Source: a virus
DNA length: 64,000 bases
Direction: 5' to 3' (one strand)
IMG/VR virus record: IMGVR_UViG_3300022821_000015
Coordinates: 1 to 64,000 of that record
Under the pieces are notes generated by a model. The model did not search any database. It saw nothing but the letters and a program-made list of their open reading frames with translations, and was not told the DNA's origin. Shown in pieces: positions 1 to 56,657 of the stretch (position 1 is its first letter; every line of letters starts with the position of its first letter). A program made the translations under genes and the position numbers.

Positions 1-556
1 GGACCAACTCATCAACCGTCTTCTTGTATGTGTCAATGGGCAGGATACCATCACTGTATCGGGTGTTTGCATTTAGTTTACATGCACCTTTTTCGGCAGC
101 AAGGTCTGCGCTTGCTTTGATAAGATAGTAACTCCACGCTTCGGCATACTCGTCAATCAACTCCAAGTTTGGTTCAGAATATGATGAGTCGTGCTTGGCA
201 AGGAAGTATGCTAGGTTGATGATCCCTACACCTAATGGTCTATAACCTTTTGAATGTAGTTCAGCAGCAAGCACTGGATACTTCTGGTAATCAAGTAATG
301 CGTCTAGTCCACGCACCGCAAGTTCACAAGGACGCTTGAAGTCTGATGGTTCTTTAACATTTCCCCAATTCATAGCCGACAATGTACATAAAGCAATCAA
401 TCCATCCTCGTCTTTTAAATCTATAAGTGGCTTAGTTGGTAGGGCAATCTCTTGACAGTTATGAACCAACACATCGTTAGCAAAAAAGTTTTCTGTGTCT
501 TTTACTGTTATGTCGTATACGGCTTCTCGTTTTGCTAATTTAGTTACTTTTGCCAT
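1..556 (-). CDS. nrdA: Ribonucleotide reductase large subunit, C-terminal trans-splicing fragment (partial)
   Basis: Class Ia ribonucleotide reductase alpha subunit, third reading frame of a fractured gene, running off the left edge. The ATG at 556 overlaps the end of the preceding nrdA frame. Residues 1-33 are a C-intein ending VLVHN; the extein restarts with CQEIALPTKP, equivalent to E. coli NrdA around thiyl-radical Cys439. Later extein motifs are LAVRGLDALLDYQ, LGVGIINLAYFLAKH and GILPIDTYKK, all typical of NrdA. The enzyme reduces ribonucleotides to deoxyribonucleotides for phage DNA synthesis. Activity should require trans-splicing to the product of the upstream frame. The radical-transfer tail of NrdA lies outside the window. 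Confidence 0.9.
   Translation of the reverse strand, partial: MAKVTKLAKREAVYDITVKDTENFFANDVLVHNCQEIALPTKPLIDLKDEDGLIALCTLSAMNWGNVKEPSDFKRPCELAVRGLDALLDYQKYPVLAAELHSKGYRPLGVGIINLAYFLAKHDSSYSEPNLELIDEYAEAWSYYLIKASADLAAEKGACKLNANTRYSDGILPIDTYKKTVDELV
458..556 (-). other. Split intein 3 of NrdA, C-intein half (33 residues)
   Basis: The sequence encodes MAKVTKLAKREAVYDITVKD followed by TENFFANDVLVHN, then Cys+1. Block F (YDITVKDTENFFAND) and block G (VLVHN) are clear. Size and split position match the classical split-intein layout, in which the short C-intein carries blocks F and G. The Cys+1 nucleophile is also the conserved NrdA active-site cysteine. Confidence 0.9.
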
Positions 557-2426
557 TTATCATTCTTCCTTGTTTCCATCCAGTTTCTAAATGTTTATTC
601 AACTTATCTTTATGAATTCTCTTGTTCTCATCGTCTTTAGTAACCCACGTATATTGCTTATTAGTATCCGAGGCATATTTATCCTTTATGTCTAGAAATG
701 ACAATAGAACATCAGTTTCCGTTAATTCCCTAGCAGCAACATACCCTCTGTTTTCTGTCCAAAACAAATGATCGCCCGTGCAGACAACTGACTGCATACC
801 ATCATCTGTTTCAACCTTATAAAGCTCCGCGTCTGGATTCGTCATACCAAACGCAGTTATAGATTGAAACTCAACGGTATTTGTCTTGGTATTATATGAC
901 TTAACCAAAACTGTTTCATATTTCTTAATGAATTTATCTACTTCGTGAATTTCGATTGAAAAGATTTCATTATCACATTTTACCGTTATCTTAGTATCTG
1001 CTACCAGACAAAGATTACTCATACGCACTGCGGCTACATCTGGTTTGAATGATGAATGGTCGTTGACGTTATCTACATTCATAAGATATATACGACCAGT
1101 ATTCTTTCGTTCTTCCATAAATGCAGAGAACAGTTCTGATGCTTTTACACGTTTCTTGCGAATGTAGTTATTCTTTTCAGCACGTTCGTATAGTTCTTTG
1201 AACTTATCTTGATCATTAAAGAAGGATTCGTATAGGCCCGGAACATCGCTTGGGCTGAATAATGTAATATCGGCATTTTGGATAAGGCGCTCATAAAACA
1301 ACTTACTGAACTGCACTGAGTAATCAATGTGGCGCACACGATTATCGTCGGTGCCTTTGTTGTTCTTTAGCACGAGTAGGTCTTCTACTTCATAATGCCA
1401 GATGGGATAATGAAGTGTTGCACTATTATGAACAACCATCATCTTATCTGGATTTTTCCCGGCGTAATAATTCTCGGTAACATCTACTGAAAAATCAGCA
1501 AATTCCGGGGTAATATTGGCAGGACGAAGTTTTGTGATTGTAGATTTTTCGGTGTTTGTCCAACAAATATCCCCAACTACAAGATGTTCGGCATCCACAT
1601 AATCCCAAATTTCGTTTCTAAAGACAAGGGTTGGATGAATCGTGCTTGTAATGACAGATGTGCCATTTTCAAGCATGATTTGTATTTGATTTGTTGATGG
1701 CACAAACGGTCGCATGGTGGCTTTAACAAAGTTATATTCATCCATGCCTGATTCAATATTTCGGGAGAGGACATACTCACCCTCACTGACATTTGTTATT
1801 TTTGTATTATTCGTTAATAAACGCATTTGCATTGATGCATTTTTTATTTCCTCATTTGTCATATTGGCCAATGTATCTATTAAATGTTTTACACTAACCT
1901 CATTGTTATTTATACGAATAGTGTCGGAAATATTATAAAATTTTCCTGCATGTTCTAACCCAGAACACGTTTTTACATAAGAATCTGCGCTAACACACCC
2001 ACCACGCACACCGCCTTGTGAATTATGAGTGAGTACCATTTCACCATCGTGTGTCTCGGACGCAAAGAAAGTGTGAGTGTCCTCTACTGTAATATCAATG
2101 TAATCTTCTGTTTGATTATCGTTTTCACATGAATAAAGATAGGTAACTCCGTTGTCAGTGATGATTTCATCAAGCTCTGTTATTTCATCTGGTTTCTTCT
2201 CTACCACATTGCTACCCAGTTGAATCATGATAGGGTGGTTTTCTGAACAGTGAATTACTGTTCCATTAGTAAATTCCAACTTTCGTTGGGCAGACTTTTG
2301 AACTATGGTGTTCCATACATCTGTAACTTGTTTGAAAACAATAATATCTTTATCTTTATCTTTTGTTTTTATTTTCATACCCGCCCGAAGGTCCGATAAT
2401 TTAATTCTCTTAGATTTTTTTGTCAT
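540..2426 (-). CDS. nrdA: Ribonucleotide reductase middle fragment: C-intein 1, complete intein 2, N-intein 3
   Basis: Middle piece of split NrdA. In order: C-intein 1 (ends VLTHN), 8-residue extein SQGGVRGG, a complete 191-residue mini-intein starting CVSADSY and ending VVHN, a 138-residue NrdA extein (SATLHYPIWH, DITLFSPSDVPGLY, GRIYLMNVDNVN, AAVRMSNL), then N-intein 3 starting CLVADTK. The start is taken at the ATG at 2426, which overlaps the small zinc-finger frame. The C-terminal ~50 residues lie beyond intein block B and resemble a homing-endonuclease DNA-binding tail (ENKRIHKDKLNKHLETGW). This polypeptide must splice three times: in trans at both ends and in cis once. Confidence 0.88.
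   Translation of the reverse strand: MTKKSKRIKLSDLRAGMKIKTKDKDKDIIVFKQVTDVWNTIVQKSAQRKLEFTNGTVIHCSENHPIMIQLGSNVVEKKPDEITELDEIITDNGVTYLYSCENDNQTEDYIDITVEDTHTFFASETHDGEMVLTHNSQGGVRGGCVSADSYVKTCSGLEHAGKFYNISDTIRINNNEVSVKHLIDTLANMTNEEIKNASMQMRLLTNNTKITNVSEGEYVLSRNIESGMDEYNFVKATMRPFVPSTNQIQIMLENGTSVITSTIHPTLVFRNEIWDYVDAEHLVVGDICWTNTEKSTITKLRPANITPEFADFSVDVTENYYAGKNPDKMMVVHNSATLHYPIWHYEVEDLLVLKNNKGTDDNRVRHIDYSVQFSKLFYERLIQNADITLFSPSDVPGLYESFFNDQDKFKELYERAEKNNYIRKKRVKASELFSAFMEERKNTGRIYLMNVDNVNDHSSFKPDVAAVRMSNLCLVADTKITVKCDNEIFSIEIHEVDKFIKKYETVLVKSYNTKTNTVEFQSITAFGMTNPDAELYKVETDDGMQSVVCTGDHLFWTENRGYVAARELTETDVLLSFLDIKDKYASDTNKQYTWVTKDDENKRIHKDKLNKHLETGWKQGRMINGKSN
543..1010 (-). other. Split intein 3 of NrdA, N-intein half (156 residues with extra tail)
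   Basis: Starts with Cys1 (CLVADTKITV, block A) directly after extein RMSNL. Block B is visible as VVCTGDHLF. Classical N-inteins are about 100 residues; this one continues for about 50 residues to GRMINGKSN. The extra segment carries the ENKRxxKxxLxxxLexGWxxGR pattern seen in phage homing endonucleases and is probably a relic of a lost endonuclease. Confidence 0.85.
1425..1997 (-). other. Intein 2 of NrdA, contiguous mini-intein (191 residues)
   Basis: Inserted between extein SQGGVRGG and SATLHYP, equivalent to GGVRGG/AATLFYP in E. coli NrdA. Begins with Cys1 (CVSADSYVKT). Block B is VITSTIHPTLVF, blocks F and G are FSVDVTENYYAG and MMVVHN, and +1 is Ser. No endonuclease motif was seen, so it is a mini-intein. 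It is the only non-split intein in the window. Confidence 0.88.
2022..2426 (-). other. Split intein 1 of NrdA, long C-intein half (135 residues)
   Basis: Contains LSDLRAGMKI, block B (IHCSENHPIMI), block F (YIDITVEDTHTFFAS) and block G (MVLTHN), with Ser+1 of SQGGVRGG. Block B lies on this half, so the split is between blocks A and B. That is the atypical position described for the TerL and UvsX split inteins. Confidence 0.87.
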
Positions 2427-2574
2427 TTTTTTTATACCTTTTGATTTCTTCTGTAGTCCATTCATGAATTTTTGTCATATGATTAGTAAAATTTCCAGCC
2501 ATAAATTTGTGACCATCTTTGCATCCAAAGGGACATGATATTTTATGTTTCTCTTGAACTCCGGGCATATTCAT
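2410..2574 (-). CDS. 54-residue zinc-finger microprotein between the halves of NrdA intein 1
   Basis: Short frame starting at the ATG at 2574, 5 bases after the N-intein 1 stop and behind an AGGGGGAG ribosome site inside the end of that frame. It ends overlapping the C-intein 1 start. It has CPFGC followed by HMTKIH, a C2H2-like finger, then WTTEEIKRYKK. The position matches that of the HEGs in the other fractured genes here, and a similar H-x-x-x-H segment opens the terL HEG. It may be the DNA-binding remnant of a decayed endonuclease or a small regulator. Coding is supported by precise packing between two frames. Confidence 0.6.
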   Translation of the reverse strand: MNMPGVQEKHKISCPFGCKDGHKFMAGNFTNHMTKIHEWTTEEIKRYKKNDKKI

Positions 2575-2579
2575 TGCAC

Positions 2580-3518
2580 TTACTCCCCCTTGCGTTCCAA
2601 ATCATCAGTTTCATCAAGAATTTCCACATAAGTATCTGGTTTTAGACAACATGATTTTACTGCGGTTTGGAAATGCTTAAAGAACGGAATGACACCTGTA
2701 TGATATGCATCGCCATTACGAATAGACGCACCGATAGCACGAATACTACCAGCGCCGATACCGATGCCAGCCTTTTGTGATACATATTTCACAATAGCGG
2801 AAGATGACGCATTAATGGAATCCAATGAATCGCCTGTTTCGATTAACACACACGAACTGAATTGTCGTTGCGGTGTTCGTACACCAGCCATAATAGGTGT
2901 AGGCAACGAGATATCAAATGTTGATATAGCATCGTAATAATCTTTTACCCATTGTAGTCTGTCTTTTTCATAATGACTGAATAGGCTCATTGCTACTAGC
3001 ATATAGCACATTTGTGGTGTTTCGAAGATTTCTTTAGTGACACGGTTTTGGACAAGATACTTGCCTCTAAACTGTTCCATAGCGGCGTATGTTAGGTCAT
3101 TATCTCGGACGTGTCGGATGTATGAGTTTAGTAGTTCATATTCTTTTTCATCGTATGCAGATAGAAGTTCGGGGTCATAAAAACCACTCTTAACATTCTT
3201 CTCTACCAGTTGACGCAATGCCCACGGTTCATATTGTCCGTATACTTGTTTACGTAGATGATAGTTAATCAGACGACCGCCAACATATTGGTAGTTTGGT
3301 GTCTCTTCGGAGATTAAATCTGCTGCTGATTTGATTAATGTTTCTTGAATGTCGGTTGATTTAATGCCATTATAGAATTGGATTTGGGAACGAATTTCTA
3401 CTTCTGAAGGCGACACTCCTGTAATGCCATCACACGCATTGAATACTACCTTATGTAGTTTTTCAATATCAAGTGTTTCTTTATCCCCTGTGCGTTTTGT
3501 TACAGTTATGTCTGTCAT
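2580..3518 (-). CDS. nrdA: Ribonucleotide reductase large subunit, N-terminal fragment with 22-residue N-intein
   Basis: First reading frame of NrdA. It opens with an ATP-cone-like regulatory domain (KRTGDKETLDIEKLHKVV) and continues through SLPTPIMAGVRTPQRQFSSC, equivalent to the conserved Cys462-pair region start, to FFKHFQTAVKSC, whose Cys matches active-site Cys225 of E. coli NrdA. The next residue is Cys1 of a very short N-intein (CLKPDTYVEILDETDDLERK), and the frame then stops. The product alone cannot be active; it should be ligated to SQGGVRGG of the next frame by trans-splicing. The start overlaps the stop of the methyltransferase gene by 4 bases, suggesting coupled translation. Confidence 0.9.
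   Translation of the reverse strand: MTDITVTKRTGDKETLDIEKLHKVVFNACDGITGVSPSEVEIRSQIQFYNGIKSTDIQETLIKSAADLISEETPNYQYVGGRLINYHLRKQVYGQYEPWALRQLVEKNVKSGFYDPELLSAYDEKEYELLNSYIRHVRDNDLTYAAMEQFRGKYLVQNRVTKEIFETPQMCYMLVAMSLFSHYEKDRLQWVKDYYDAISTFDISLPTPIMAGVRTPQRQFSSCVLIETGDSLDSINASSSAIVKYVSQKAGIGIGAGSIRAIGASIRNGDAYHTGVIPFFKHFQTAVKSCCLKPDTYVEILDETDDLERKGE
2583..2648 (-). other. Split intein 1 of NrdA, ultra-short N-intein half (22 residues)
   Basis: Cys1 follows extein AVKSC. Only block A (CLKPDTYVEI) is present before the stop codon, so this is an atypically split intein with a very short N-half. Confidence 0.85.
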
Positions 3519-15265: not shown

Positions 15266-15296
15266 ATATTTTATCTGCTTCTTTGAAATGAACAAA

Positions 15297-27719: not shown

Positions 27720-28571
27720 CTATTGCCAGTCCACTTTTTCGATTGAATATTCATATTGCGCTTCTTTGTAGAATTTCTTCCTTTGGGTAAGATGCCGCTT
27801 CGCAAACTTACACGTTGACGTAACGTCCCAAATCTGCACGAAATCCTTGTCTTCCGCTTTACGGATACCCCGCCCAATACTCTGGATAACACGAATGAAA
27901 CTCTTGCCCGGTTCCAACAACATAAGATTAAAGATGCGAGGTATGTTGATACCCACAGCAGCAACGCCATAGGTGGCAACGATAATCTTATTAGTTCCTG
28001 TTTTAATCTCGTCATAGGTTTCCTTTCGCTTATCGCCTTTTGTAGCACCACTTACGAACATAGCATCAAAGCCGTTATCGTTTAGTTTTACTACAATATC
28101 TTTACCCGCCTGAACACGGTCTACAAGGACAAGCATATTACCACTTTTACTTACCGTTGCAATAAGACCCGCCAAATAGTTCTGACGTTCGTTATCTGTT
28201 AACAAATATTTCAGTTCGCTTTGGTAGTTCGGGTATTCTTTAATGTCTATTAATTGTACCACATTTACATGGCAATTTGCAAGCACTCCTTTCTCCTGAA
28301 GTGATTTTGCTGATACCTCATTCAATACAGGACCGATAGCACATAGGATACCAGCCTTTGCTAACTCTTCTTTCGGAACGGTTCCCGTCAATCCCCAACG
28401 AACAGGAATATGTGCCATTGGACCCGTTAGAATATTTTTCAGCATATCAGCTTTTGCACCGTGACAGTTCGATACGACTACGTTGTTCGCCACATAATTG
28501 TGGTTATTCTCCACATGAAGATTGTATGTTATTGCTGGCTTTTTTATTATTATCTTAGATTTCATTTTCAT
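27720..28571 (-). CDS. uvsW: UvsW-type helicase, C-terminal trans-splicing fragment
   Basis: Residues 1-35 are a C-intein (ITYNLHVENNHNYVANNVVV then SN). The extein starts CHGAKADMLKNIL, completing the DExH box whose DE is on the N-terminal fragment. Later superfamily 2 motifs: WGLTGTVP (III), NMLVLVDRVQ (IV), AMFVSGATK, IIVATYGVAAVGINIPR (V) and RVIQSIGRGIRK (VI, arginine fingers). It works as a recombination and fork-remodelling helicase once spliced. The start overlaps the HEG stop as ATGA. Confidence 0.9.
   Translation of the reverse strand: MKMKSKIIIKKPAITYNLHVENNHNYVANNVVVSNCHGAKADMLKNILTGPMAHIPVRWGLTGTVPKEELAKAGILCAIGPVLNEVSAKSLQEKGVLANCHVNVVQLIDIKEYPNYQSELKYLLTDNERQNYLAGLIATVSKSGNMLVLVDRVQAGKDIVVKLNDNGFDAMFVSGATKGDKRKETYDEIKTGTNKIIVATYGVAAVGINIPRIFNLMLLEPGKSFIRVIQSIGRGIRKAEDKDFVQIWDVTSTCKFAKRHLTQRKKFYKEAQYEYSIEKVDWQ
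28467..28571 (-). other. UvsW split intein, C-intein half (35 residues)
   Basis: Block F (YNLHVENNHNYVANN) and block G (VVVSN) with Cys+1. The residue before the terminal Asn is Ser instead of the usual His, which normally assists Asn cyclisation. Confidence 0.88.
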
Positions 28572-29440
28572 CGTATATTACTCACCTTATCCTTTATGCT
28601 GTCTGGTAAATCAGTTAGCATTATCTCATCTATATTATGCTTGAACCACGACTGCGATACAATAGCGTATCCCCATCCCATCTGATTAGCCCATTCCGTA
28701 GCATATTTTTCCTTGGCACGGGATTTATCATTCATACACTCGGTAGGCTTTATCTCTATCAGTATACCAAGTGCTTCATTGTGAAAGTCAACTATGTAAA
28801 TGTGCTCTACACCATCATGCATATATGGTATTCTAATTTTCTCGTATTCATAATCACTGTTAATCGAGTGCCATGCAGCCTCCCACGATGATCTATATTT
28901 CATTCCGTTGTATTCTACTTGCCAGTGTGTCCAACTATTATGAATATTAGGAGTGAATTTCCCAGTCCTAATATTTTCCTTGACGCGAACAGATGATGCG
29001 TGTCGCTGTGCGATGGTAGGTGAAATACCGTACATCGGATTACCTTTCCCGATTCTATCGGTGGATAATTTCATCAACCTATCATCATTCTCCTTCGTCA
29101 ATCCTTTATTCCACGGAACAGTCCCGGTATGGCTATCCTTATTCCACGGCGTACCAGTGTTAAGGTTTTTTCTTATCTTGTCGCCGTGCTGTCTCTGACA
29201 TTCACTTCCGCCAAGGTTTGCCGCCGAAGACTTGCGTTTAGAAATATATTCGGCACGCAATGTTTGATTTTGGTGATATGCAATATCAATGTCCCAACCT
29301 GCTCGGAATCTATTCCATAGCAGGTAACCCTTCTCTACAATACCGGTGGACGTTTCGAACAACCCATCTGCCATCTGTGTCACTGTAATCTCAAATCCTG
29401 CGTCTTCCAACCTTTTGTTCCAATCAACTTTTTTTGCCAT
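28568..29440 (-). CDS. Homing endonuclease in the uvsW split intein (NUMOD3 + PD-(D/E)XK)
   Basis: 290 residues lying between the two intein halves. NUMOD3-type DNA-binding modules are visible at TGTVPWNKGLTKENDDR and GKGNPMYGISP. The C-terminal core is YRSSWEAAWHSINSDYEYEK then YIVDFHNEALGILIEIKPTE, giving the Glu, Asp and E-x-K of a PD-(D/E)XK nuclease. The core has the same motif order and wording as the gp4-like protein at 60.7 kb. It likely cuts intein-free uvsW alleles to spread the cassette. ATG 29440 lies behind a structured late promoter. Confidence 0.8.
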   Translation of the reverse strand: MAKKVDWNKRLEDAGFEITVTQMADGLFETSTGIVEKGYLLWNRFRAGWDIDIAYHQNQTLRAEYISKRKSSAANLGGSECQRQHGDKIRKNLNTGTPWNKDSHTGTVPWNKGLTKENDDRLMKLSTDRIGKGNPMYGISPTIAQRHASSVRVKENIRTGKFTPNIHNSWTHWQVEYNGMKYRSSWEAAWHSINSDYEYEKIRIPYMHDGVEHIYIVDFHNEALGILIEIKPTECMNDKSRAKEKYATEWANQMGWGYAIVSQSWFKHNIDEIMLTDLPDSIKDKVSNIR

Positions 29441-29450
29441 CTAAATATCC

Positions 29451-29494
29451 CATAAATACACCCGCTTTAGTGCGGTGTGTTCATAGTATTTATG
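29451..29494 (-). promoter_or_regulatory. Late promoter inside a hairpin upstream of the uvsW HEG
   Basis: Perfect 9-base arms CATAAATAC (29486-29494, minus reading) and GTATTTATG (29451-29459) enclose an inner ACACC/GGTGT stem. The 5' arm is itself a late box and includes the UvsW N-fragment stop codon TAA. Read-through transcripts would fold this region; late transcripts start inside it. Confidence 0.65.
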
Positions 29495-30512
29495 CAAAGT
29501 ACGAAATTATATCATGATTAATAGTCAGATGCTTCGCCTGAACCCATCCTTCAGTAGTTTTTATTTTATGATTACCAGTTATCTCCAACACGGTATCATC
29601 GTCCATCGTAATCTCGTACATGTCTTCCGCATTAGACGATGCGAGGTTCTCGTGTCGTTTCATAACGCGATTGTACTCCATGGCACCGGTTTGTTCGTTG
29701 AGTGTCAGCACAATATCGCCTACGCTAATATCTTTAATCATCACATTCCCCTTCGATGTGCTCACTAATGTTTTTTCATCCAAACATTCATCAACAATAA
29801 CCGCCACTACCCCGTATAAAAACTCTTCGATAGTAATGCCTTCGGTTTTGGCAGCTGTCTTCTTCATAAGTGCACCAAGGCTTTGCCAAGTGCATATAGT
29901 ATGCTGAAATCCGATGTCTTTACGATCACCGTAATAGACGCCCACGTTTAGACCCATATTGATATAGTCTTCTTCCGTTTGCGTGACCAATGACTTATTC
30001 GGGACAATAACAATGGTTCGCCCTCGGTCTTCACACTTATGCGATAGAATAGCGGTTATAAGCGTTTTTCCAGCCCCTGTGGCGATTTCTTGGACACCTT
30101 GGGGGTTTTCTAGGAAACCATTGATAATCTCTACCTGATAGTCACGAACCGCCACGGGTGTTCCAGCTACGGGATGACCCTCTGGCCAGATGAAATCTTT
30201 ATATGAATCTTCTTTTACTTTTTCAAATGGTTCAACATATGAATCGTATTTGCGGCGGTCATCAAGATCGACTGTATATCCTTCTTTCTCAATATCTTCA
30301 AGAATATCAGGAAGCAGATTGATATATGTTCCGCCACCCATTTGAAAGAATGCAATCTTCCCATCCCACCGACCTAGTTTGACCGAAGGGATATGGAACG
30401 CACCCGGTACTTCATATTTGAACTTGTTGTATAACTTTTTTCGTATAGAGGTATCTAAACCAGTAACCTTACAATTGCATTCATCGTTTACTATAATTTT
30501 CGCTTTTGGCAT
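29490..30512 (-). CDS. uvsW: UvsW-type helicase, N-terminal fragment with N-intein
   Basis: The N-terminal UvsW domain (residues 1-110; VPGAFHIPSVKLGRWDGKIA) is followed by the helicase Q/I motifs: VRDYQVEIINGF and GVQEIATGAGKTLITAILSH (Walker A). RTIVIVPNKSLVTQTEEDY is motif Ia. The extein ends GVVAVIVDE, and the next residue is Cys1 of a 98-residue N-intein (CLDEKTLVSTSKG). The helicase motif II DExH is therefore cut between E and C. ATG 30512 overlaps the SGNH gene. Confidence 0.9.
   Translation of the reverse strand: MPKAKIIVNDECNCKVTGLDTSIRKKLYNKFKYEVPGAFHIPSVKLGRWDGKIAFFQMGGGTYINLLPDILEDIEKEGYTVDLDDRRKYDSYVEPFEKVKEDSYKDFIWPEGHPVAGTPVAVRDYQVEIINGFLENPQGVQEIATGAGKTLITAILSHKCEDRGRTIVIVPNKSLVTQTEEDYINMGLNVGVYYGDRKDIGFQHTICTWQSLGALMKKTAAKTEGITIEEFLYGVVAVIVDECLDEKTLVSTSKGNVMIKDISVGDIVLTLNEQTGAMEYNRVMKRHENLASSNAEDMYEITMDDDTVLEITGNHKIKTTEGWVQAKHLTINHDIISYFA
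29493..29786 (-). other. UvsW split intein, N-intein half (98 residues)
   Basis: Block A CLDEKTLVST, a central region with ISVGDIVLTLNEQ, and block B VLEITGNHKIKTTEG. Classical split position, between blocks B and F, with a homing endonuclease gene in the gap. Confidence 0.9.
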
Positions 30513-38739: not shown

Positions 38740-38744
38740 ACGTA

Positions 38745-38773
38745 ATATTAAATCATCTTAATCATTTTGTCAA
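38745..38773 (-). promoter_or_regulatory. sigma70 promoter abutting ATG (38739)
   Basis: TTGACA (38768-38773), 17-bp spacer, TAATAT (38745-38750), then TACGT-ATG. A leaderless early transcript is predicted. Confidence 0.8.
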
Positions 38774-41165: not shown

Positions 41166-41170
41166 ATCTC

Positions 41171-43481: not shown

Positions 43482-43509
43482 ATGATATTTATTTGAAATA
43501 AATACCTTT
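43482..43509. promoter_or_regulatory. 28-bp divergent late promoter between two paralogues
   Basis: Minus strand AATAAATA (43486-43493) then TCAT-ATG; plus strand AATAAATA (43497-43504) then CCTTT-ATG. The whole interval is a near palindrome (GATATTTATTT / AAATAAATACC). Confidence 0.78.
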
Positions 43510-44358
43510 ATGAAAATAGCAGTATTCCCTGAACACTCAAGTATGGCTGGGCGACCAGTATTTGACGCATTTATTAAGTCGCTAAAAGGCGAAGATGTCG
43601 TTCATAACAATATGGATGCGGACGTTGCTGTTATATGGTCGCAACTATGGAACGGCAGAATGAAACCAAATGAACAGATTTGGAAACATTATCGTTCACA
43701 GAAAAAGCCGGTTATTGTATTGGAAGTCGGGTGCTTGAAACGTAATGAAACGTGGAAGGTCGGGATTAATGGCATTAATGCCGATGCTATTTGGGCTACG
43801 GCTAATGGACCAACACGCCTTGGACTTGAAGCCAAACCTTGGTCAACTGGCGACAATATTATTATTTGTGGTCAGCACGGGTTTAGTGAACAATGGAAAG
43901 GTATGCCGCCTATGGACGAATGGATGATTAGTATATGTCGCAAGGTTCGTGCACATACTGACCGCAAGATTATACTACGACCCCATCCACGTTTTCACGT
44001 ATCACCACATTATATAAAAGAGTTTAACGATGTTATTATTGATAAACCGAAACATTTAAAAGGATCGTATGATGACTTTGATTTTGAAGATACTTTGGGC
44101 AATGCTCACTGTGTCATTTGCCATAGTAGTGGTCCTGCTGTGGTTAGTGTTCTTAATGGTGTTCCCGCTTTTGTCTCACATCATAATATGGCTTATCCTG
44201 TCGCTATGGATATTACTGAGTTGGAACACATAGAGACACCGTTATTGTTTCCACGTGATAAGTGGATAAATAAGATTAGTTACACTGAGTGGACAATAGA
44301 CGAGATTGCTGCTGGTGAACCTTGGAATCGATTAAAGGAAAAACTATGCACGGATTAG
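43510..44358 (+). CDS. GT-B-like surface-polysaccharide protein, paralogue 5 (282 aa), predicted leaderless
   Basis: WSTGDNIIICGQHGFSEQWK, KIILRPHPRFHVSPHYIKEF, AHCVICHSSGPAVVSVLNGV then PAFVSHHNMAYPVAMDI, and C-terminal YTEWTIDEIAAGEPWNRLKE. Motif order is the same as in paralogues 1-4 but on the opposite strand, suggesting duplication with inversion. RPHP and HSSGPAV-x-x-x-x-x-GVP are the clearest GT-B-type signature of the set. Confidence 0.68.
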   Translation: MKIAVFPEHSSMAGRPVFDAFIKSLKGEDVVHNNMDADVAVIWSQLWNGRMKPNEQIWKHYRSQKKPVIVLEVGCLKRNETWKVGINGINADAIWATANGPTRLGLEAKPWSTGDNIIICGQHGFSEQWKGMPPMDEWMISICRKVRAHTDRKIILRPHPRFHVSPHYIKEFNDVIIDKPKHLKGSYDDFDFEDTLGNAHCVICHSSGPAVVSVLNGVPAFVSHHNMAYPVAMDITELEHIETPLLFPRDKWINKISYTEWTIDEIAAGEPWNRLKEKLCTD

Positions 44359-47354: not shown

Positions 47355-48608
47355 TTATTCAACTTCTTCTACGACGACTTCTTCTGGTTCGATTTCTTCA
47401 ACCACCGGCTCTGGATTATCAAGTGTATCCATATACTCGTTCATAACGATTTGAAGTTTATCGTTAGACCAGTTTTTACGGAACTCAATGATTTCTTCAC
47501 CAGCTTTGGTTTCATATTTAAGGCGATTTCCTTGCTTAACAAGAATACCCTTTTCCTCAAACATATCCAACATACCCGAATACGGGTCCATGCCTGTTTC
47601 GTATGGGATTTGAAGTTCTGCATCCTCAAAAGGTTTGTTGTATCGTGTTTTCATAATCTTACACTTAGCACGAATACCGTGAACCTTTGAAGTCTTTACG
47701 CCATCAGCATCAGTTTTCAACTTCAGCTTTTTCATAGCGATAACAATAGATGCCGCATAGATTGGACCTGAACCGCCACTGATTTTATCATCTGGATCAA
47801 ACATATCCTGTGATGCATATGTGTGGTTTGTAGCCACTAGACCGACATTGTAGTTACCGAACATATTAACACAGTTCATAACCAATGACTTTAATGCACG
47901 TGGTTTGTGTCCAAAGTCACCTTTCATATTACCAGCAGTAAACTGGTCAATCTGAATGTCAGTAAGCAATGCACCTAAAGAATCAATAACAAATAGAATC
48001 TTCGGACGTTCTGCTTCATCCATTTCTTTATAATCTTTCATAAACGATGCGATAGTTTTTGCTACATCGTCTACTTTACTCATTGACAAACGTAGTAGTT
48101 TATCTTCACTTGTATCTACGTTTAGTGCGTGTAGCCAAGATTCATCAAGTGCGTTTTCGCTGTCAATAAGGACAACATAGATGCCTTGATCTTGTGCATT
48201 TTTTACTACGTTACCCGATGCGATAAATGATTTACCAGAATTATGACTGGAAATGCCATCTCCCCAATATCGATGATTAGCATGATTGACCTCAAAATCA
48301 AAACATTCAGCATCATCAATTGTGGATACTAAGATAATTTTCTCGGGGCCTGAAGTAGTCAAAATCACATCACCATAGCTTAATTCAGACGCAAGTAACC
48401 ATTTACCGCTTTCAAGCTGAACTAAATGGTTTTCAGCACACTCAGTCTGATGATTTTCAGTTCCAATTTTAACCATCCCCATAACGCCCTTATCAAACCA
48501 GCTGACTATTGATTGATAACCGTCCGGTGTATCAATCTCAATATCATAACTATTTGACTTATACAGCTGTTCTAATTCTTCAACTGATACTGTTTTTTCA
48601 GTAAACAT
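47355..48608 (-). CDS. uvsX: UvsX/RecA-type recombinase, C-terminal trans-splicing fragment
   Basis: Residues 1-123 are a long C-intein ending GISSHN. The extein starts SGKSFIASGN, completing the P-loop GESG/SGKS. Then VVLIDSENALDESWL (the conserved E/D region), PKILFVIDSLGALLTDIQID (Walker B), VNMFGNYNVGLVATNHTYAS (L1/L2 region) and GGSGPIYAASIVIAMKK. It catalyses strand exchange in recombination-dependent replication once spliced. The acidic C-terminus (EEVVVEEVE) is typical. SD AGGAGAA lies inside the end of the HEG, one base gap. Confidence 0.93.
   Translation of the reverse strand: MFTEKTVSVEELEQLYKSNSYDIEIDTPDGYQSIVSWFDKGVMGMVKIGTENHQTECAENHLVQLESGKWLLASELSYGDVILTTSGPEKIILVSTIDDAECFDFEVNHANHRYWGDGISSHNSGKSFIASGNVVKNAQDQGIYVVLIDSENALDESWLHALNVDTSEDKLLRLSMSKVDDVAKTIASFMKDYKEMDEAERPKILFVIDSLGALLTDIQIDQFTAGNMKGDFGHKPRALKSLVMNCVNMFGNYNVGLVATNHTYASQDMFDPDDKISGGSGPIYAASIVIAMKKLKLKTDADGVKTSKVHGIRAKCKIMKTRYNKPFEDAELQIPYETGMDPYSGMLDMFEEKGILVKQGNRLKYETKAGEEIIEFRKNWSNDKLQIVMNEYMDTLDNPEPVVEEIEPEEVVVEEVE
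48240..48608 (-). other. UvsX split intein, long C-intein half (123 residues)
   Basis: Contains block B (QTECAENHLVQLESG), ELSYGDVILTT, block F (FDFEVNHANHRYWGD) and block G (GISSHN), with Ser+1. Carrying blocks B to G makes this the atypical split. Confidence 0.9.
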
Positions 48609-48609: not shown

Positions 48610-49737
48610 TTATTCTCCTATTTCAGTTACGCATTTTTTAATAATTATATCAGGGGTTGATCGGTATTCTGATTCCCAAATAATAACTAATTTTTTTACT
48701 AGTTCGCAATCTCGTATTCTATTTTCCCGGATAAAATCCGAGTCCCATTTCTCTTTGGACGTATACCCGAATGACTTCATATCTGCTTCATACATTAATG
48801 GATTACGATGAAAGTAATCACCATGAAATTCAATAACCGTCCCTGAATCTTTATGAAAGAAATCAACACGCAAGCCATCAATTAAATATTCATAATTTCT
48901 CGTTTCATAATACATATTTCCCTGAACATACTTCGTTATAGCATCAAATAAATGCTGGGAAATCTTTGAAAACCGTTGCGTTGGTTTACTTTTCATTTTT
49001 TCACAATAATCATTGTATTTATTTAAAGCTTCCTCATATGATAAACCACGGGCCATGCCCCCTTTTATACTATGTGATTTTTTTAAATTAAAGAGAGCGT
49101 TATCTTCTTTTGATTTATTTGAAAGAGTTTGTTGCCATTGTTTAATTCTAGCTTCGTATTTTACACGCCCTATATCTTCGCCATATTTCTTTGTATAATA
49201 TATCAATCCGTTGGTTGTTTGAATATTTGAAACCTCTGCTTTAGCTTCAAGCTCAGTATAACCTTGTTTTAGCCAAAAAGCTACTGACCTACATGTATAT
49301 TCACTAGTTCCTTTTGTTTTCTCAACTGACAACATATTTCGGGCTTTCTGTATTTTAATTACTTCCTGCTTGGCGGCTTCTTCAGTATATCCAAGATTAA
49401 TCCAGTATTCTGAGCAATTTTTAAACCCTGCTTTCTTCCGGGTTGTTTGCGTTTTATATATTTCTTTAAAATTAGCTTTGCCATAACGCAAGACTTGCGT
49501 ATATATTGAAGTGCCTGAAATCCCTTTGAGCCGCCTATATCTCCCTTTATAATTATTCAAATCATATAACACAAAACATGCAATAGTGGCTAACATATTT
49601 TCTACTTTTTTCGGGGTTCCATAATGATCAAAGAAATCATTCAGTCGTTCATAATGACATGAAGTTAAAACCTTACTTAATAAAATATCCCTTACGTGCT
49701 TTCTTTTTAAAAATCGCTCTGTTTGTTTGGTTATCAT
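48610..49737 (-). CDS. Homing endonuclease in the uvsX split intein, VSR-like (EDxHD)
   Basis: 375 residues. An N-terminal helical region, then repeats of the form YWINLGYTEEAAKQEVIKIQ (three copies of x-WhxxGYTExxAxxEVxxxQ) that probably bind DNA, then the nuclease core YLIDGLRVDFFHKDSGTVIE followed by FHGDYFHRNP and VIIWESEYR. D...E-F-H-G-D-x-F-H fits the EDxHD family related to very-short-patch repair nucleases, known from phage recA and split-intein loci. It should cut intein-free uvsX. Confidence 0.85.
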   Translation of the reverse strand: MITKQTERFLKRKHVRDILLSKVLTSCHYERLNDFFDHYGTPKKVENMLATIACFVLYDLNNYKGRYRRLKGISGTSIYTQVLRYGKANFKEIYKTQTTRKKAGFKNCSEYWINLGYTEEAAKQEVIKIQKARNMLSVEKTKGTSEYTCRSVAFWLKQGYTELEAKAEVSNIQTTNGLIYYTKKYGEDIGRVKYEARIKQWQQTLSNKSKEDNALFNLKKSHSIKGGMARGLSYEEALNKYNDYCEKMKSKPTQRFSKISQHLFDAITKYVQGNMYYETRNYEYLIDGLRVDFFHKDSGTVIEFHGDYFHRNPLMYEADMKSFGYTSKEKWDSDFIRENRIRDCELVKKLVIIWESEYRSTPDIIIKKCVTEIGE

Positions 49738-49739
49738 TA

Positions 49740-49780
49740 TACCAGTCTCCTTTTATAGTATTTAGCATAGAAGACTGGTA
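49740..49780 (-). promoter_or_regulatory. Hairpin with late promoter in its loop upstream of the uvsX HEG
   Basis: Perfect 9-base stem TACCAGTCT (49772-49780) / AGACTGGTA (49740-49748). The loop holds GCTAAATACTATAAAAGG, a late-type box. The HEG ribosome site GGAGA overlaps the 3' arm, 10 bases before ATG 49737. Read-through mRNA would hide the ribosome site; a late transcript starting in the loop would not. Confidence 0.75.
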
Positions 49781-49788
49781 AGATACAT

Positions 49789-50028
49789 TTATTTCGGCTT
49801 ATATCTGATTTTTATTGATGCGGTTTTAGGCAAGCACCCAGATTCACCGGCAAGAATGGTTACTTTACCAAGCGGGATACCTTTATTGAAATCACCACTA
49901 ATACGATAGTTTAGTAGATAGTTTCCTGTTGAAATCCAATCGGTAGGATCGTGGAAACCAAAGCTGATTCCCTCAATAGATTTAGTTAAGTCTTTTCGAA
50001 ATTTGCTCACATCGAAGGGACGGGGCAT
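49789..50028 (-). CDS. uvsX: UvsX/RecA-type recombinase, N-terminal fragment with 15-residue N-intein
   Basis: 79 residues: MPRPFDVSKFRKDLTKSIEG, FHDPTDWISTGNYLLNYRIS, GIPLGKVTILAGESG, then Cys1 and CLPKTASIKIRYKPK. The extein stops in the middle of Walker A. RecA-family proteins carry this N-terminal stretch directly before the P-loop. ATG 50028 lies behind TTAGGAGAATAATA and a terminator. Without trans-splicing neither half can bind ATP. Confidence 0.92.
   Translation of the reverse strand: MPRPFDVSKFRKDLTKSIEGISFGFHDPTDWISTGNYLLNYRISGDFNKGIPLGKVTILAGESGCLPKTASIKIRYKPK
49792..49836 (-). other. UvsX split intein, 15-residue N-intein
   Basis: CLPKTASIKIRYKPK is the whole N-intein: block A only. 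This matches the ultra-short type known from UvsX split inteins found in metagenomic data. Confidence 0.9.
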
Positions 50029-50040
50029 TATTATTCTCCT

Positions 50041-53536: not shown

Positions 53537-53588
53537 AGCGCACCTTTTCTATTAATGGTATTTATCACTGACAGATTATTAAGTCAGC

Positions 53589-54689
53589 TTATCTCCAGCC
53601 ACTCATTCCAGATATAGATGAGAAAAACGGCAATGGTGCCACCATTTGCTCATTATGGTCCCGCATATGCTTTTCTAACGTGGGATTATAGTCTTTTAAT
53701 ACCGTTGCCATACGCACTACAAGCAATGAAGCCATTACCAAGTCGTCGTTTTCACCTTCCTTTGATGAATATGACCGTCCCTTTGCAACAAACGTTTTCA
53801 TTTCAGATATAAGTGGTTTGCTATAAACAATCATTCGTTCTGATTCAATCATTACTTTAAACTTAGCGCAAGCCGCAATCTTAGAGTTCTCAGTCGTGTT
53901 AAATCCTTTGCGGAACTTCCTAACATTACCAAGTTTCTTCGGTTCTGACAGGAATATACCATCGATATTTTCCTCACCAAGTTCGGCAATATTGATTAAT
54001 GCAGCTTCTCCGATTGAGTTATTTTCAACAGAATAATATACATCATTTTTTGTCCCTGTAACATCGGTTAGGTGGGCACAAATAGATTTCATTACTCTCA
54101 CTTGTGTTGGAATATCGGACTTATTATGCATCCATTCACCGCATTGAATCATTTCAGGTAGTTCATATATTTGGATGGCTGCGTTGTCGCCGCCTGTTCC
54201 CATAGCGGGGTCCAATCCAACAAGATATACATGACCTTTTGATGGTTCTTTATACCATCGCACCTGACCATCCACTCTTACTGGCGTAACACCTTCCATA
54301 TCAACTAGCTTCAACCCGCTAATCAAAGTTTCTTCGTGAATAATAAACTCACAGTTTGATGCCAATACTGTATTAGCATAATATCGGTGGCCATCTTCGA
54401 CTTCTACCAAATCAAACACAGCCCGAACACCAATATATTCTCGTGCAATAAGTGCAAGATGTCCCTCTGAACTTAATACCACATCTCCTATATCAAAATC
54501 CTTTGCCTCTTTATAGTCAATCAAGTTTTGATATAATTTATGATCTTCTGTGCATTCCAATATTACACCTTGTTCAAAAGTCAGCTTCCATACTGCCTTA
54601 TCTCCCATAAAAGATACTCCGGAAAAATCCTTATAGCCATCCGGCGTCAATACTTTATAGTTTTTTATGTTTGGAGCTAAATCACCCAT
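53589..54689 (-). CDS. 17: Terminase large subunit, C-terminal trans-splicing fragment
   Basis: Residues 1-112 are a C-intein ending YYANTVLASN. The extein starts CEFIIHEETLISGL. The nuclease domain is marked by VYLVGLDPAMGTGGDNAAIQ (first catalytic Asp), YSVENNSIGEAALINIAEL and EGENDDLVMASLLVVRM (last catalytic Asp pair), the RNase H-like packaging nuclease of T4 gp17. It cuts and packages concatemeric DNA after splicing to the ATPase half. The start overlaps the HEG stop by 13 bases. Confidence 0.93.
   Translation of the reverse strand: MGDLAPNIKNYKVLTPDGYKDFSGVSFMGDKAVWKLTFEQGVILECTEDHKLYQNLIDYKEAKDFDIGDVVLSSEGHLALIAREYIGVRAVFDLVEVEDGHRYYANTVLASNCEFIIHEETLISGLKLVDMEGVTPVRVDGQVRWYKEPSKGHVYLVGLDPAMGTGGDNAAIQIYELPEMIQCGEWMHNKSDIPTQVRVMKSICAHLTDVTGTKNDVYYSVENNSIGEAALINIAELGEENIDGIFLSEPKKLGNVRKFRKGFNTTENSKIAACAKFKVMIESERMIVYSKPLISEMKTFVAKGRSYSSKEGENDDLVMASLLVVRMATVLKDYNPTLEKHMRDHNEQMVAPLPFFSSISGMSGWR
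54354..54689 (-). other. TerL split intein, long C-intein half (112 residues)
   Basis: Contains YKVLTPDGYKDFSGV, block B (VILECTEDHKLYQNL), FDIGDVVLSSEG, block F (FDLVEVEDGHRYYAN) and block G (VLASN), with Cys+1. The penultimate residue is Ser, not His. It aligns in layout with the known atypical TerL split inteins. Confidence 0.88.
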
Positions 54690-55702
54690 TTTTCAAAATC
54701 ATCCTTCGTTTTTAGTATTTGATAATTGGTTTTAGTCGTGAAGAGCCATACCTCATACGAATATCCTTGTTTTATAACTGCTTCCCTTTTACGAAGATTA
54801 TTTACTATTCTACCATCATAACCATCACGGCCATTGGCATTCCACCACCACATTGATTTAACTTCAATGATACGATTTTCATCTGGAATAAAAATATCTG
54901 GATAATATTTCTTTACTCGGTTTTTTTCATATGAATTATATTGAAAGACTTCTATTACATATTCTTCATAATCGTTATGTACACTAATAGAATCTTCTGT
55001 ATATGTTTCTAGTAAAGCATCGATCACCATATTTTCATAGCCTCGAATACCAATAATTTTACCGCTCGGGAGTTCATAATCTTTTACCGAAGAGTTACCT
55101 TTTCCAGACTTTTTTGAAATGTTTGGAAGTAAAAAGGTATTACCCACACCGAACTTTTCAATGTTTGTCTTGCGACGTTTTTCATTTATTTCATTCTGTT
55201 CGTCAGAAGATTTGGCCCCATTGGTCGCCGCCGATGCTTTCCAGTTAGAATAGTATTCATTGCCATATCTATCCAGTTTGGTCTTCTTGGCCTTATCCTT
55301 AAATTCGTCGCTTTGTGTCGCCCATTCTGTGCCATATTTTGCACGGAAGGTTTCTCTGGATTTTTCCACTTGTTCTTGGATTTGCTCGGGTGTTCTCTTT
55401 GATGCAGCATTGGATTTGTTCTCAGAATCCGAGTGTCGTTGCTCATCTGTCCAGTTTTGTTTGGTTTCCGACACACTTTTTCCAACACATTTTGGTGCGC
55501 CACAACTATTAGCATATGTATGTGTATGTTGATAAAATGTTAAAGATAATCCACATCTACATTTTGGAGAAATACCCGTGATGTATTCTTCATAATAGGA
55601 CTGATATGTATAACTATGTTGTTTAAGATGTTTCGTGAATTGCCCATTTGATTTACAATATTTTTCATTGTCAATTTTTGATGTTTCGTATGTAGCACTC
55701 AT
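54677..55702 (-). CDS. Homing endonuclease in the terL split intein, PD-(D/E)XK-like
   Basis: 341 residues. N-terminal finger-like part (YCKSNGQFTKHLKQHSYTYQ then SYYEEYI, CRCGLSLTF, CGAPKC), NUMOD-like repeats (KYGTEWATQSDEFKDKAKKT, KFGVGNTFLLP) shared in style with the 13.5 kb endonuclease, and a C-terminal core KKYYPDIFIPDENRIIEVKS then MWWWNANG and YSYEVWLF. D...E-V-K suggests a PD-(D/E)XK catalytic site. It lies exactly between the intein halves. Confidence 0.82.
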   Translation of the reverse strand: MSATYETSKIDNEKYCKSNGQFTKHLKQHSYTYQSYYEEYITGISPKCRCGLSLTFYQHTHTYANSCGAPKCVGKSVSETKQNWTDEQRHSDSENKSNAASKRTPEQIQEQVEKSRETFRAKYGTEWATQSDEFKDKAKKTKLDRYGNEYYSNWKASAATNGAKSSDEQNEINEKRRKTNIEKFGVGNTFLLPNISKKSGKGNSSVKDYELPSGKIIGIRGYENMVIDALLETYTEDSISVHNDYEEYVIEVFQYNSYEKNRVKKYYPDIFIPDENRIIEVKSMWWWNANGRDGYDGRIVNNLRKREAVIKQGYSYEVWLFTTKTNYQILKTKDDFEKWVI

Positions 55703-55710
55703 TTATATTC

Positions 55711-55744
55711 TCCTTGAAATCGTTTCATACTTATTTATCAAGGA
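55711..55744 (-). promoter_or_regulatory. Hairpin hiding the ribosome site of the terL HEG, late box in its loop
   Basis: Perfect 7-base stem TCCTTGA (55738-55744) / TCAAGGA (55711-55717). The 3' arm contains the AAGGA ribosome site, 9 bases before ATG 55702. A late-type TGATAAATAAG lies at the 5' arm and loop and includes the TerL N-fragment stop codon. Confidence 0.7.
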
Positions 55745-56657
55745 AATCATCATCTCTAAATTTTTTATACAGTGTTCCTATATCAACAATACTAGTGGCA
55801 CCATTTTCATCTTGAATAGTTATCAAAGAAGAGTGTACCACGCAACAGTGTTCCCGCCTGAATTTTTCAGTACCAATAGCCTGTTCTTCGTCGTCTGCCC
55901 ATTTTTGGTCACGGTCTGGATGTTCGTGCCAGAATGATCTGAATGCTTTAAATCCATTCGTTCCAATACCCGTATCATTTCCAAAATCATCTACAGTTTT
56001 GTTTGCCATTTTCCATTCTAGGGCAAACTGATCTTCATCGGAGTTTGGCGTTGATGTGATAATACATTTACCACCTGTTGCTAACGTAGGACGCATTGAA
56101 GTCCAGAATTCACTGGCGATTGTATTACGAACGAATGCAAATTCGTCTAGATATAATAACGTGATTGACATACCACGACCCGTGTTTTCTGTCGTAGCTT
56201 GTGCCACCAATCTTGAACCGTTATCAAACTCCAATGAGTTTTTGTTATATGTAGTTGCGCCGCATCTAATGAAATCGGGACATAGTTCGTAAGCGTATCG
56301 CACACGTTGCATAATCTCAGCTGCACCTGATTGTTTATGTGCTGCTACAAGAATAATACTATCAGGCTTGAACATAGCAAACCATAATAGGTATCCCGCT
56401 GCTGTTGTCGATTTTCCCGTCTGTCGTGGCATAAGCGCAATGGCAAAACGATTGTGGTGATATGTATCCACCAGTCTTTCTTGAAACTCGAACGGTGAAT
56501 ATTTAAGTTGACCCTTGGTAGGGTGCTGAATATAGAAATAATTTTCCAGAAAATATTTATGACCAGTTATCGGATCAGCACATTTTGCAAACTCTATCAT
56601 TTGCTCACGTGTATATACCATTTTCATATTTGGTTTTTTAACTAGTTCTTCTGACAT
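55731..56657 (-). CDS. 17: Terminase large subunit, N-terminal ATPase fragment with 37-residue N-intein
   Basis: The ATPase half of gp17: HNRFAIALMPRQTGKSTTAA is Walker A (RQTGKST type), ITLLYLDEFAFV is Walker B with the catalytic Glu, and KCIITSTPNSDEDQF is the coupling motif. The extein ends EKFRREHC; the next Cys starts the N-intein CVVHSSLITIQDENGATSIV. ATG 56657 is preceded by TAGGGAGAT. It powers DNA translocation when joined to the nuclease fragment. Confidence 0.93.
   Translation of the reverse strand: MSEELVKKPNMKMVYTREQMIEFAKCADPITGHKYFLENYFYIQHPTKGQLKYSPFEFQERLVDTYHHNRFAIALMPRQTGKSTTAAGYLLWFAMFKPDSIILVAAHKQSGAAEIMQRVRYAYELCPDFIRCGATTYNKNSLEFDNGSRLVAQATTENTGRGMSITLLYLDEFAFVRNTIASEFWTSMRPTLATGGKCIITSTPNSDEDQFALEWKMANKTVDDFGNDTGIGTNGFKAFRSFWHEHPDRDQKWADDEEQAIGTEKFRREHCCVVHSSLITIQDENGATSIVDIGTLYKKFRDDDFLDK
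55734..55844 (-). other. TerL split intein, N-intein half (37 residues)
   Basis: CVVHSSLITIQDENGATSIV then DIGTLYKKF and an acidic end. It carries block A only. The spacing C-V-x-x-x-x-x-x-x-x-x-DG...LYKK resembles the 25-residue N-intein of the Ace Lake TerL intein. Confidence 0.87.

What the first reader, a model, noticed from the sequence alone, without database searches (positions are those of the whole stretch)
1..56657. Four essential genes fractured by split inteins, with homing endonuclease genes between the halves
nrdA, uvsW, uvsX and terL are each broken into separate frames, and at every break the upstream frame ends in an N-intein (Cys1) and the downstream frame starts with a C-intein ending in Asn followed by Cys or Ser. 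Six inteins are present, five of them split. In uvsW, uvsX and terL an HEG fills the gap exactly. Replication, recombination, nucleotide supply and packaging would all depend on protein trans-splicing. Split inteins of this fractured type are known mainly from metagenomic fragments, so their co-occurrence in one phage backbone is unusual.
Basis: partly seen in the sequence, partly recalled or inferred. Interest (0 to 1): 0.95.

Follow-up and report, generated by a model that had tools for sequence, protein, structure and literature searches.

The report
Phage genes fractured by split inteins
An uncultivated T4-like phage has four essential genes broken into pieces that end in halves of self-splicing protein elements, and the breaks hold intact or decayed DNA-cutting genes that probably caused them; the kind is known, but this phage and its relatives together show many of the steps by which it may arise.

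Summary
In a 77,972-bp uncultivated T4-like phage record, nrdA, uvsW, uvsX and terL are interrupted by six inteins, five split, each with Cys1, terminal Asn and a Cys/Ser +1 residue. Records from two other metagenome assemblies repeat it. Most readable relatives lack the interruptions at the same codons, and a sister record has all four genes uninterrupted. Two split inteins match solved, characterised ones (uvsX: VidaL; nrdA-c: NrdJ-1). Trans-splicing is very likely, but not shown. Relatives show uninterrupted, cis mini-intein, split, split-plus-endonuclease and decayed states. In terL a 99%-identical endonuclease block was exchanged with another phage, one edge lying inside the intein. All three endonuclease leaders fold into a hairpin near the start codon (terL weaker) and hold a late-promoter-like motif. 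Best reading: endonuclease cassettes invade mini-inteins, split them, then decay, leaving permanently split genes.

The parts
2580..3518 (-). nrdA extein 1 plus IntN-a (22 aa, codons 2583-2648)
   Evidence: ends SC|CLKPDT...*
2410..2574 (-). 54-codon zinc-finger ORF in the nrdA-a seam; read as the remnant of a homing endonuclease C-terminus
   Evidence: 52% identity over 42 aa to residues 255-296 of 299 of KARL1_59 (DUF7487, homing-endonuclease phrogs), which lies between the halves of nrdA in phage KARL-1; no phrog or significant Pfam match of its own
540..2465 (-). nrdA middle frame: IntC-a (2022-2465, likely start ATG at 2426), extein 2 SQGGVRGG (1998-2021), contiguous intein b (1425-1997), extein 3 (1011-1424), IntN-c (540-1010)
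   Evidence: IntN-c matches NrdJ-1 intein E 9.7e-14
543..677 (-). 45-aa tail of IntN-c resembling the C-terminal motif of an endonuclease-like ORF; probable second remnant
   Evidence: motif found in 2 distinct places of 2.59 Mb scanned, the other the C-terminus of a NUMOD3-bearing ORF in L171; phage hits weak
2..556 (-). IntC-c (458-556) plus nrdA extein 4, cut by the record end
29490..30512 (-). uvsW extein N plus IntN (98 aa, 29493-29786)
29441..29489 (-). leader with hairpin before the uvsW endonuclease start; contains CATAAATACT
   Evidence: z -3.63, 0 of 200 shuffles as stable. No clear Shine-Dalgarno by eye
28568..29440 (-). endonuclease gene in uvsW, TnsA-like nuclease domain
   Evidence: PF08722 E 4.2e-6; phrog_22417 and endonuclease phrog_15427
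27720..28571 (-). uvsW IntC (35 aa, 28467-28571) plus extein C
49789..50028 (-). uvsX extein N plus IntN of 15 aa (49792-49836)
   Evidence: junction GESG|SGKS
49738..49788 (-). leader hairpin closing over the Shine-Dalgarno of the uvsX endonuclease; CTAAATACT in the loop
   Evidence: z -5.08, 0 of 200 shuffles as stable
48610..49737 (-). endonuclease gene in uvsX (phrog_22677, unknown function; distant relatives annotated as VSR-type)
47355..48608 (-). uvsX IntC (123 aa, 48240-48608) plus extein C
   Evidence: IntC matches solved VidaL intein, E 8.4e-42; RecA PF00154
55731..56657 (-). terL extein N plus IntN (37 aa, 55734-55844)
54677..55702 (-). homing endonuclease gene in terL (DUF7487)
   Evidence: PF24308 E 3.4e-35; phrog_12131 and phrog_3339 homing endonuclease
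53589..54689 (-). terL IntC (112 aa, 54354-54689) plus extein C
   Evidence: matches engineered consensus intein CatC E 3.4e-8
54660..55772 (-). block about 99% identical to L008 (another phage): last 13 codons of IntN, leader, endonuclease, first 10 codons of IntC
   Evidence: HEG 1014/1023, IntN codons 1-24 only 28/72, extein N 444/556, most of extein C 441/700

Best explanation
The four genes make their proteins by protein trans-splicing: each pair of split-intein halves associates, excises itself and joins the extein pieces, giving full-length NrdA, UvsW, UvsX and TerL. The breaks were made by homing-endonuclease cassettes that inserted into the coding sequence of pre-existing mini-inteins, at internal places the protein tolerates being cut in. 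Such a cassette carries a stop codon, a leader hairpin with a late-promoter-like motif, and the endonuclease gene. After splitting, the endonuclease can spread, be exchanged between phages, or decay, leaving a permanently split intein. In this genome terL, uvsX and uvsW are at the stage with an endonuclease; nrdA-a and probably nrdA-c are at the remnant stage; nrdA-b is still contiguous. Shown by sequence: anatomy, uninterrupted relatives, the range of states, the exchanged block, purifying selection on terL IntC in one comparison. Inferred: splicing, the order of the stages, endonuclease activity, late expression.
For: Anatomy and motifs. Separate records with the same arrangement at 99.96-100% identity. 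Junctions uninterrupted in readable loci: uvsX 65 of 67 (the 2 others are copies of this phage), terL 25 of 31, uvsW 68 of 76, nrdA a+b 77 of 79, nrdA c 74 of 74. Sister record G004 has long open nrdA (773 aa) and uvsW (490 aa), adjoining uvsX and terL exteins, and 0 intein_Cterm matches. Same-site cis mini-inteins: uvsW in L083 and L096, nrdA-a in L171, Thanatos-2 and SUMAE; split without endonuclease: uvsW in L087, nrdA-c in L171; split with an endonuclease-family gene: nrdA in KARL-1, uvsW in S16, uvsX in MIJ3; decaying: frameshifted endonuclease in L047, L057 and L075, identical there. VidaL and NrdJ-1 matches. terL IntC dN/dS 0.060. Block exchange. Hairpins and motif.
Against: No splicing data. 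The stages come from different phages; their order is inferred, and no rooted tree was made. The nrdA-c tail match is weak (best E 0.03). uvsX has Ala at the block B position where the terL inteins have Thr (usual Thr recalled). Selection is not uniformly tight: dN/dS 0.639 for terL IntN and 0.360 for uvsW IntN (dS 1.87, near saturation); uvsW IntN and IntC diverge more than the exteins against L081 (38% and 60% identity against 64-66%). The terL, L008 and L091 leader hairpins are weak (z -2.13, -1.97, -1.25), and the TAAATA motif was picked after looking. Exact TATAAATA is not enriched in the window (9 matches, 8.3 expected).
Confidence: 0.8

Rival explanations
1. Intein and endonuclease home together as one cassette into the empty gene; the endonuclease recognises the empty extein site and the intein was already split when it arrived.
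For: Same insertion codons in distant phages (uvsX in MIJ3, uvsW in S16); endonuclease and IntC diverge similarly in L047 and L050 (48-56%); most readable relatives are uninterrupted.
Against: The exchanged terL block starts inside IntN, and IntN codons 1-24 did not move with it (28/72 identical); cis mini-inteins and split inteins without an endonuclease occupy the same sites.
Confidence: 0.3
2. The halves work as separate polypeptides that assemble without splicing, as reported for a nrdA split by a homing endonuclease (phage Aeh1).
For: Such a split RNR that keeps its function is cited in PMC10448857 and PMC3653736 (passages).
Against: All five pairs keep the splicing residues; the uvsX break lies inside the nucleotide-binding P-loop; terL IntC shows purifying selection (dN/dS 0.060); relatives of two of the inteins are characterised as splicing.
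Confidence: 0.07
3. The genes are decaying pseudogenes or assembly errors.
For: Many frames are broken; one relative's endonuclease is frameshifted.
Against: Matching contigs from other metagenome assemblies; no other copies in the record; exteins and terL IntC conserved at protein level; breaks coincide with intein seams.
Confidence: 0.03
4. Self-splicing introns carrying endonucleases interrupt the genes, and the RNA is spliced.
For: Introns with endonucleases are known in T4-like phages (PMC2988022, passages).
Against: No Rfam family reaches its gathering score in the window; the pieces bear intein halves in frame with the exteins.
Confidence: 0.02

Closest known systems
'Fractured genes' (Dassa et al. 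2009, NAR 37:2560; paper not held; content recalled)
   Same: Conserved phage enzyme genes broken by split inteins with a free-standing endonuclease gene between the halves (recalled); 7 nrdA and 2 nrdJ interrupted by inteins in ocean metagenomes, as cited in PMC3653736 (passages).
   Different: Here five split inteins in four genes of one phage record, seams with only endonuclease remnants, and same-site cis, split and remnant states in relatives. Whether Dassa et al. show any of these I could not check.
VidaL split intein (PDB 6vgv, 6vgw)
   Same: uvsX IntC matches it at E 8.4e-42 over residues 1-122 of 123; very short IntN (16 aa in VidaL, PMC13014065 passages; 15 aa here).
   Different: Different sequence; splicing untested here.
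NrdJ-1 split intein (PDB 8ubs)
   Same: nrdA-c IntN matches at E 9.7e-14.
   Different: Carries a 45-aa tail resembling an endonuclease C-terminus.
AceL-TerL and GOS-TerL atypical split inteins
   Same: In terL by name, with a short IntN (AceL 25 aa; natural atypical range 15-37 aa; PMC13014065 passages); 37 aa here. terL IntC matches the engineered CatC at E 3.4e-8.
   Different: Insertion site and split position were not compared; the last 13 codons of IntN here moved with the endonuclease block.
Fractured genes in cultivated phages S16 (uvsW), MIJ3 (uvsX), KARL-1 (nrdA), SEA1 and kaaroe (terL)
   Same: Broken extein, intein halves and an endonuclease-like gene; uvsW and uvsX at the same site as here; nrdA-a shifted by one codon in KARL-1.
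   Different: The terL cases sit at another site (YIDE|C); in kaaroe the N part and the endonuclease-like part are one ORF.

Membership tests
Split intein | N half with Cys/Ser1 and C half with terminal Asn plus +1 nucleophile, in separate frames | tested here: met
   five of five pairs
Split intein | intein domain by profile or structure-sequence match | tested here: met
   profile matches for nrdA a and c, uvsW, terL, some under the curated cut-off; uvsX through VidaL; nrdA-a profile A2 matches a gp41-1-like intein at E 0.00022 while its single sequence finds nothing convincing
Split intein | trans-splicing activity | not testable with these tools
   needs co-expression
Fractured gene arrangement | endonuclease gene between the intein halves | tested here: met
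   3 of 5 split inteins have an endonuclease gene (for uvsX by distant relation only); 1 a clear remnant; 1 a probable remnant
Fractured gene arrangement | junctions correspond to an uninterrupted gene in relatives | tested here: met
Vsr-type homing endonuclease (uvsX endonuclease) | sequence relation to phage Vsr-type endonucleases | tested here: inconclusive
   27.9% over 58% to phage proteins annotated putative VSR endonuclease; no Pfam match above cut-off
T4-type control of homing endonucleases | hairpin hiding the ribosome-binding site with a late promoter in or beside it | tested here: inconclusive
   predicted in 3 of 3 leaders, z -5.08, -3.63, -2.13 (terL: 6 of 200 shuffles as stable; uvsW without a clear Shine-Dalgarno); five C-half starts z -0.98 to +0.98; TAAATA in 3 of 3 leaders, 0 of 5 C-half starts; arrangement described in PMC2988022 (passages)
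T4-type control of homing endonucleases | late-only expression | not testable with these tools
   needs infection RNA and protein data
Group I or II intron | intron RNA structure | tested here: not met
   no Rfam match at gathering score
Homing mobility | recent exchange of the endonuclease gene between phages | tested here: met
   terL HEG 1014/1023 identical, dS 0.02 against 1.43 in the adjoining extein N; shown for terL only

The most novel reading that the evidence does not exclude
The endonuclease cassette is an autonomous parasite of inteins: it targets intein-coding DNA at the seam, travels with its own stop codon, hairpin, promoter-like motif and IntN tail, makes cis inteins split irreversibly, and swaps between different intein alleles so that chimeric split inteins arise. 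Repeated invasion and loss would ratchet a phage towards many obligately trans-spliced essential genes.
Probability: 0.4. Interest if true: 0.72.

Novelty: new member of a known kind. Interest (0 to 1): 0.6.

Why it matters
How natural split inteins arise is an open question, and Dassa et al. proposed fractured genes as a missing link (recalled). This genome and its relatives show many of the predicted states at the same codons, including remnants after loss of the endonuclease, so the order can be tested with cultivated phages. It also means that replication, recombination, nucleotide supply and packaging in one phage would depend on five trans-splicing reactions that must not cross-react; the opposite charge of the uvsX and nrdA-a halves suggests one way. 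Very short natural IntN pieces (15 aa here, 12 aa in KARL-1) are of use in protein chemistry.

Tried and rejected
Group I/II intron: no Rfam match. Assembly error or pseudogene: rejected by separate contigs and conservation. A second uninterrupted gene copy: none in the record. Exact TATAAATA as late promoter: not enriched; the shorter TAAATA occurs in the 60 nt before 13 of 40 ORFs that I picked by hand, against 4.8% of random 63-nt stretches of the window; the motif was chosen after seeing the leaders, and intergenic stretches may be AT-richer than random ones. Scans of viral contigs for the terL and uvsX endonucleases gave 5 and 2 loci, mostly this phage again. No structure was predicted, because solved relatives were found by sequence. 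Paper searches; none of the listings or passages that I saw describes several split inteins in one phage (PMC3653736 mentions two putative inteins in one Campylobacter phage nrdA), but most subscription papers are not held. The nrdA-c remnant rests on a motif and stays probable only.

Limits of the counts. Loci whose junction was not readable were dropped: 6 of 73 uvsX, 47 of 78 terL, 4 of 80 uvsW, 1 of 80 nrdA a+b, 6 of 80 nrdA c. The four dropped uvsW loci (L086, L088-L090) carry IntC, so they are interrupted ones; L171 and L172, which carry inteins at nrdA-c (read by eye), are also among the dropped. uvsW junctions in the uvsX scan: 8 of 8 readable uninterrupted. The fetched stretches L267 and L268 were not used.


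Full report
What is there. The window is bases 1-64,000 of a 77,972-bp virus record. Read on the minus strand, four genes are interrupted. nrdA: extein 1 and a 22-aa IntN (2580-3518), then a frame (540-2465) with IntC-a, the eight-residue extein SQGGVRGG, a contiguous 191-aa intein b, extein 3 and IntN-c, then IntC-c and extein 4 (2-556), which runs off the record. uvsW: 29490-30512, endonuclease 28568-29440, 27720-28571. uvsX: 49789-50028 with an IntN of only 15 aa, endonuclease 48610-49737, 47355-48608. terL: 55731-56657, endonuclease 54677-55702, 53589-54689. Cys1, terminal Asn and the +1 Cys or Ser are present in all six inteins.

It is real. Record G001 from another assembly matches the window at 99.96-100% identity in four overlapping stretches (16,334, 10,001, 4,360 and 2,633 bp); record G002 is 100% identical over the 15,412 bp read, and a further contig of the same metagenome as G002 over 4,138 bp. 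Each extein long enough to search occurs once in the whole record.

The genes are normally whole. With a fixed rule on loci from four scans, the junction is uninterrupted in 65 of 67 readable uvsX loci (the other two are copies of this phage), 25 of 31 terL, 68 of 76 uvsW, 77 of 79 nrdA a+b and 74 of 74 nrdA c. The sets held 73, 78, 80, 80 and 80 loci; the rest were not readable, among them known intein bearers (see Tried and rejected). Many loci are near-duplicates and two scans kept only the best 80, so these are counts of loci, not of independent phages. A sister record, G004 (90,574 bp, uvsX extein 87% identical), has adjoining uvsX and terL exteins, open frames of 773 and 490 aa for nrdA and uvsW, and no intein C-terminal match.

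The inteins are of types known to splice. The uvsX IntC matches the solved VidaL intein at E 8.4e-42; nrdA-c IntN matches NrdJ-1 at E 9.7e-14; terL IntC matches the engineered consensus CatC at E 3.4e-8. uvsW IntN matches a DnaX mini-intein only at E 0.00014; nrdA-a IntC and intein b find nothing convincing as single sequences, nrdA-a as a profile a gp41-1-like intein at E 0.00022. VidaL is reported with t1/2 of about 1 min, Nrd-J of 7 s, and natural atypical IntN lengths of 15-37 aa (PMC13014065, passages). terL IntC compared with L008 has dN/dS 0.060; IntN values are higher, 0.639 in terL and 0.360 in uvsW.

The seams. Three seams hold genes of three families: DUF7487 in terL, a TnsA-like nuclease in uvsW and a family whose distant phage relatives are annotated VSR in uvsX. 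The nrdA-a seam holds a 54-codon zinc-finger ORF (2410-2574) that is 52% identical over 42 aa to residues 255-296 of KARL1_59 (299 aa), the DUF7487 protein, matching homing-endonuclease phrogs, that lies between the halves of nrdA in cultivated Acinetobacter phage KARL-1. It is best read as what is left of such a gene. The nrdA-c IntN has a 45-aa tail whose motif I found in only one other distinct place of 2.59 Mb, the C-terminus of a NUMOD3-bearing ORF in L171; database support is weak, so this remnant is probable only.

States at the same sites. nrdA-a: uninterrupted in most; cis mini-intein in L171, Thanatos-2 and SUMAE; split with a full endonuclease-family gene in KARL-1; split with remnant here. 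In KARL-1 and Thanatos-2 the intein sits one codon earlier (S|C...HN|CSQGG against SC|C...HN|SQGG). uvsW: uninterrupted; cis in L083 and L096; split without endonuclease in L087; split with endonuclease here, in L081, L082, L085 and L091 (IntN frames end in a stop after about 100 residues), and in Salmonella phage S16. terL: uninterrupted; split with endonuclease here, in L008 and L050; split with a frameshifted endonuclease in L047, L057 and L075, which look like one phage. uvsX: uninterrupted; split with endonuclease here and in Pseudomonas phage MIJ3 at the same GESG|SGKS. The MIJ3 paper, of which I saw passages, reports its PolB split intein; the passages found did not mention uvsX.

Exchange. 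Window and L008 share 1014 of 1023 endonuclease bases, 41 of 42 in the last 13 IntN codons plus stop and 30 of 30 in the first ten IntC codons, but only 28 of 72 in IntN codons 1-24, 444 of 556 in extein N and 441 of 700 in most of extein C; IntC declines gradually (277/306). dS is 0.02 in the endonuclease, 0.42 in IntC and 1.43 in extein N. Three contigs of metagenome 3300035698, two of this phage and one of L008's phage, break in this shared gene, so both were in one sample. The sharp left edge inside IntN shows that the unit moved most recently was the endonuclease with its leader and parts of both intein halves, not the intein as a whole.

Control. The leaders of the three endonucleases fold into hairpins near the start codon: z -5.08 (uvsX), -3.63 (uvsW), -2.13 (terL); MIJ3 -4.36, L008 -1.97, L091 -1.25; the five C-half starts of this window range from -0.98 to +0.98. 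In uvsX and terL the stem covers the Shine-Dalgarno; uvsW has no clear one. All six leaders contain TAAATA; none of the five C-half starts does. The motif also precedes 13 of 40 other ORFs, several of which look structural to me. This resembles the late-only control described for T4 endonucleases (PMC2988022, passages), but expression was not measured.

Charge. uvsX IntN is +5 and the first 35 residues of its IntC are -6; nrdA-a is the reverse, -5 and +13. Opposed polarity would help keep pairs from mixing; this is inference.

Verdict. The class is known since 2009 (recalled; the paper is cited in papers seen) and exists in cultivated phages, so it is a new member of a known kind. One other record, G015, has as many intein C-terminal matches (five, in 251 kb). 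What lifts it is that remnants, cis forms and an exchange block together make the origin of split inteins by endonuclease invasion directly testable.

Noticed in passing
L280:1343-2239 (KARL-1): nrdA IntN of only 12 aa (CLTPDTKVEILV), shorter than the 15-37 aa range given for natural atypically split inteins in PMC13014065.
   Followed up: partly
L008:640-1623: A second, contiguous intein of about 325 aa with a LAGLIDADG domain (PF14528 E 2.2e-11) sits in the terL P-loop region of the phage that shares the terL endonuclease.
   Followed up: partly
L047:1200-2640: By eye, terL carries a further split intein with another endonuclease-like ORF at a different site, so that terL is split twice.
   Followed up: no
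L169:7311-7666 and L171:8225-8499: nrdA is broken again near extein 4 residues 13-18 without a clear intein (by eye); possibly a gene in pieces.
   Followed up: no
L082, L083, L157: uvsW has a second interruption of about 1.6 kb at extein N residue 149/150; L050, L056 and L069 have one of about 1.1 kb there.
   Followed up: no
window 13520-15295: Free-standing 591-aa homing endonuclease (phrog_3339, E 3.4e-139; DUF7487), distantly similar to the terL endonuclease.
   Followed up: no
window 60678-61118: Head-closure protein whose family (phrog_218, TnsA-like PF08722) also matches the nuclease domain of the uvsW endonuclease.
   Followed up: no
window 37927-44358: Five ORFs (37927, 38774, 39559, 42618, 43510) are paralogues of one unidentified family: most pairs match at 21-28% identity, E 1e-4 to 7e-17.
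   Followed up: partly
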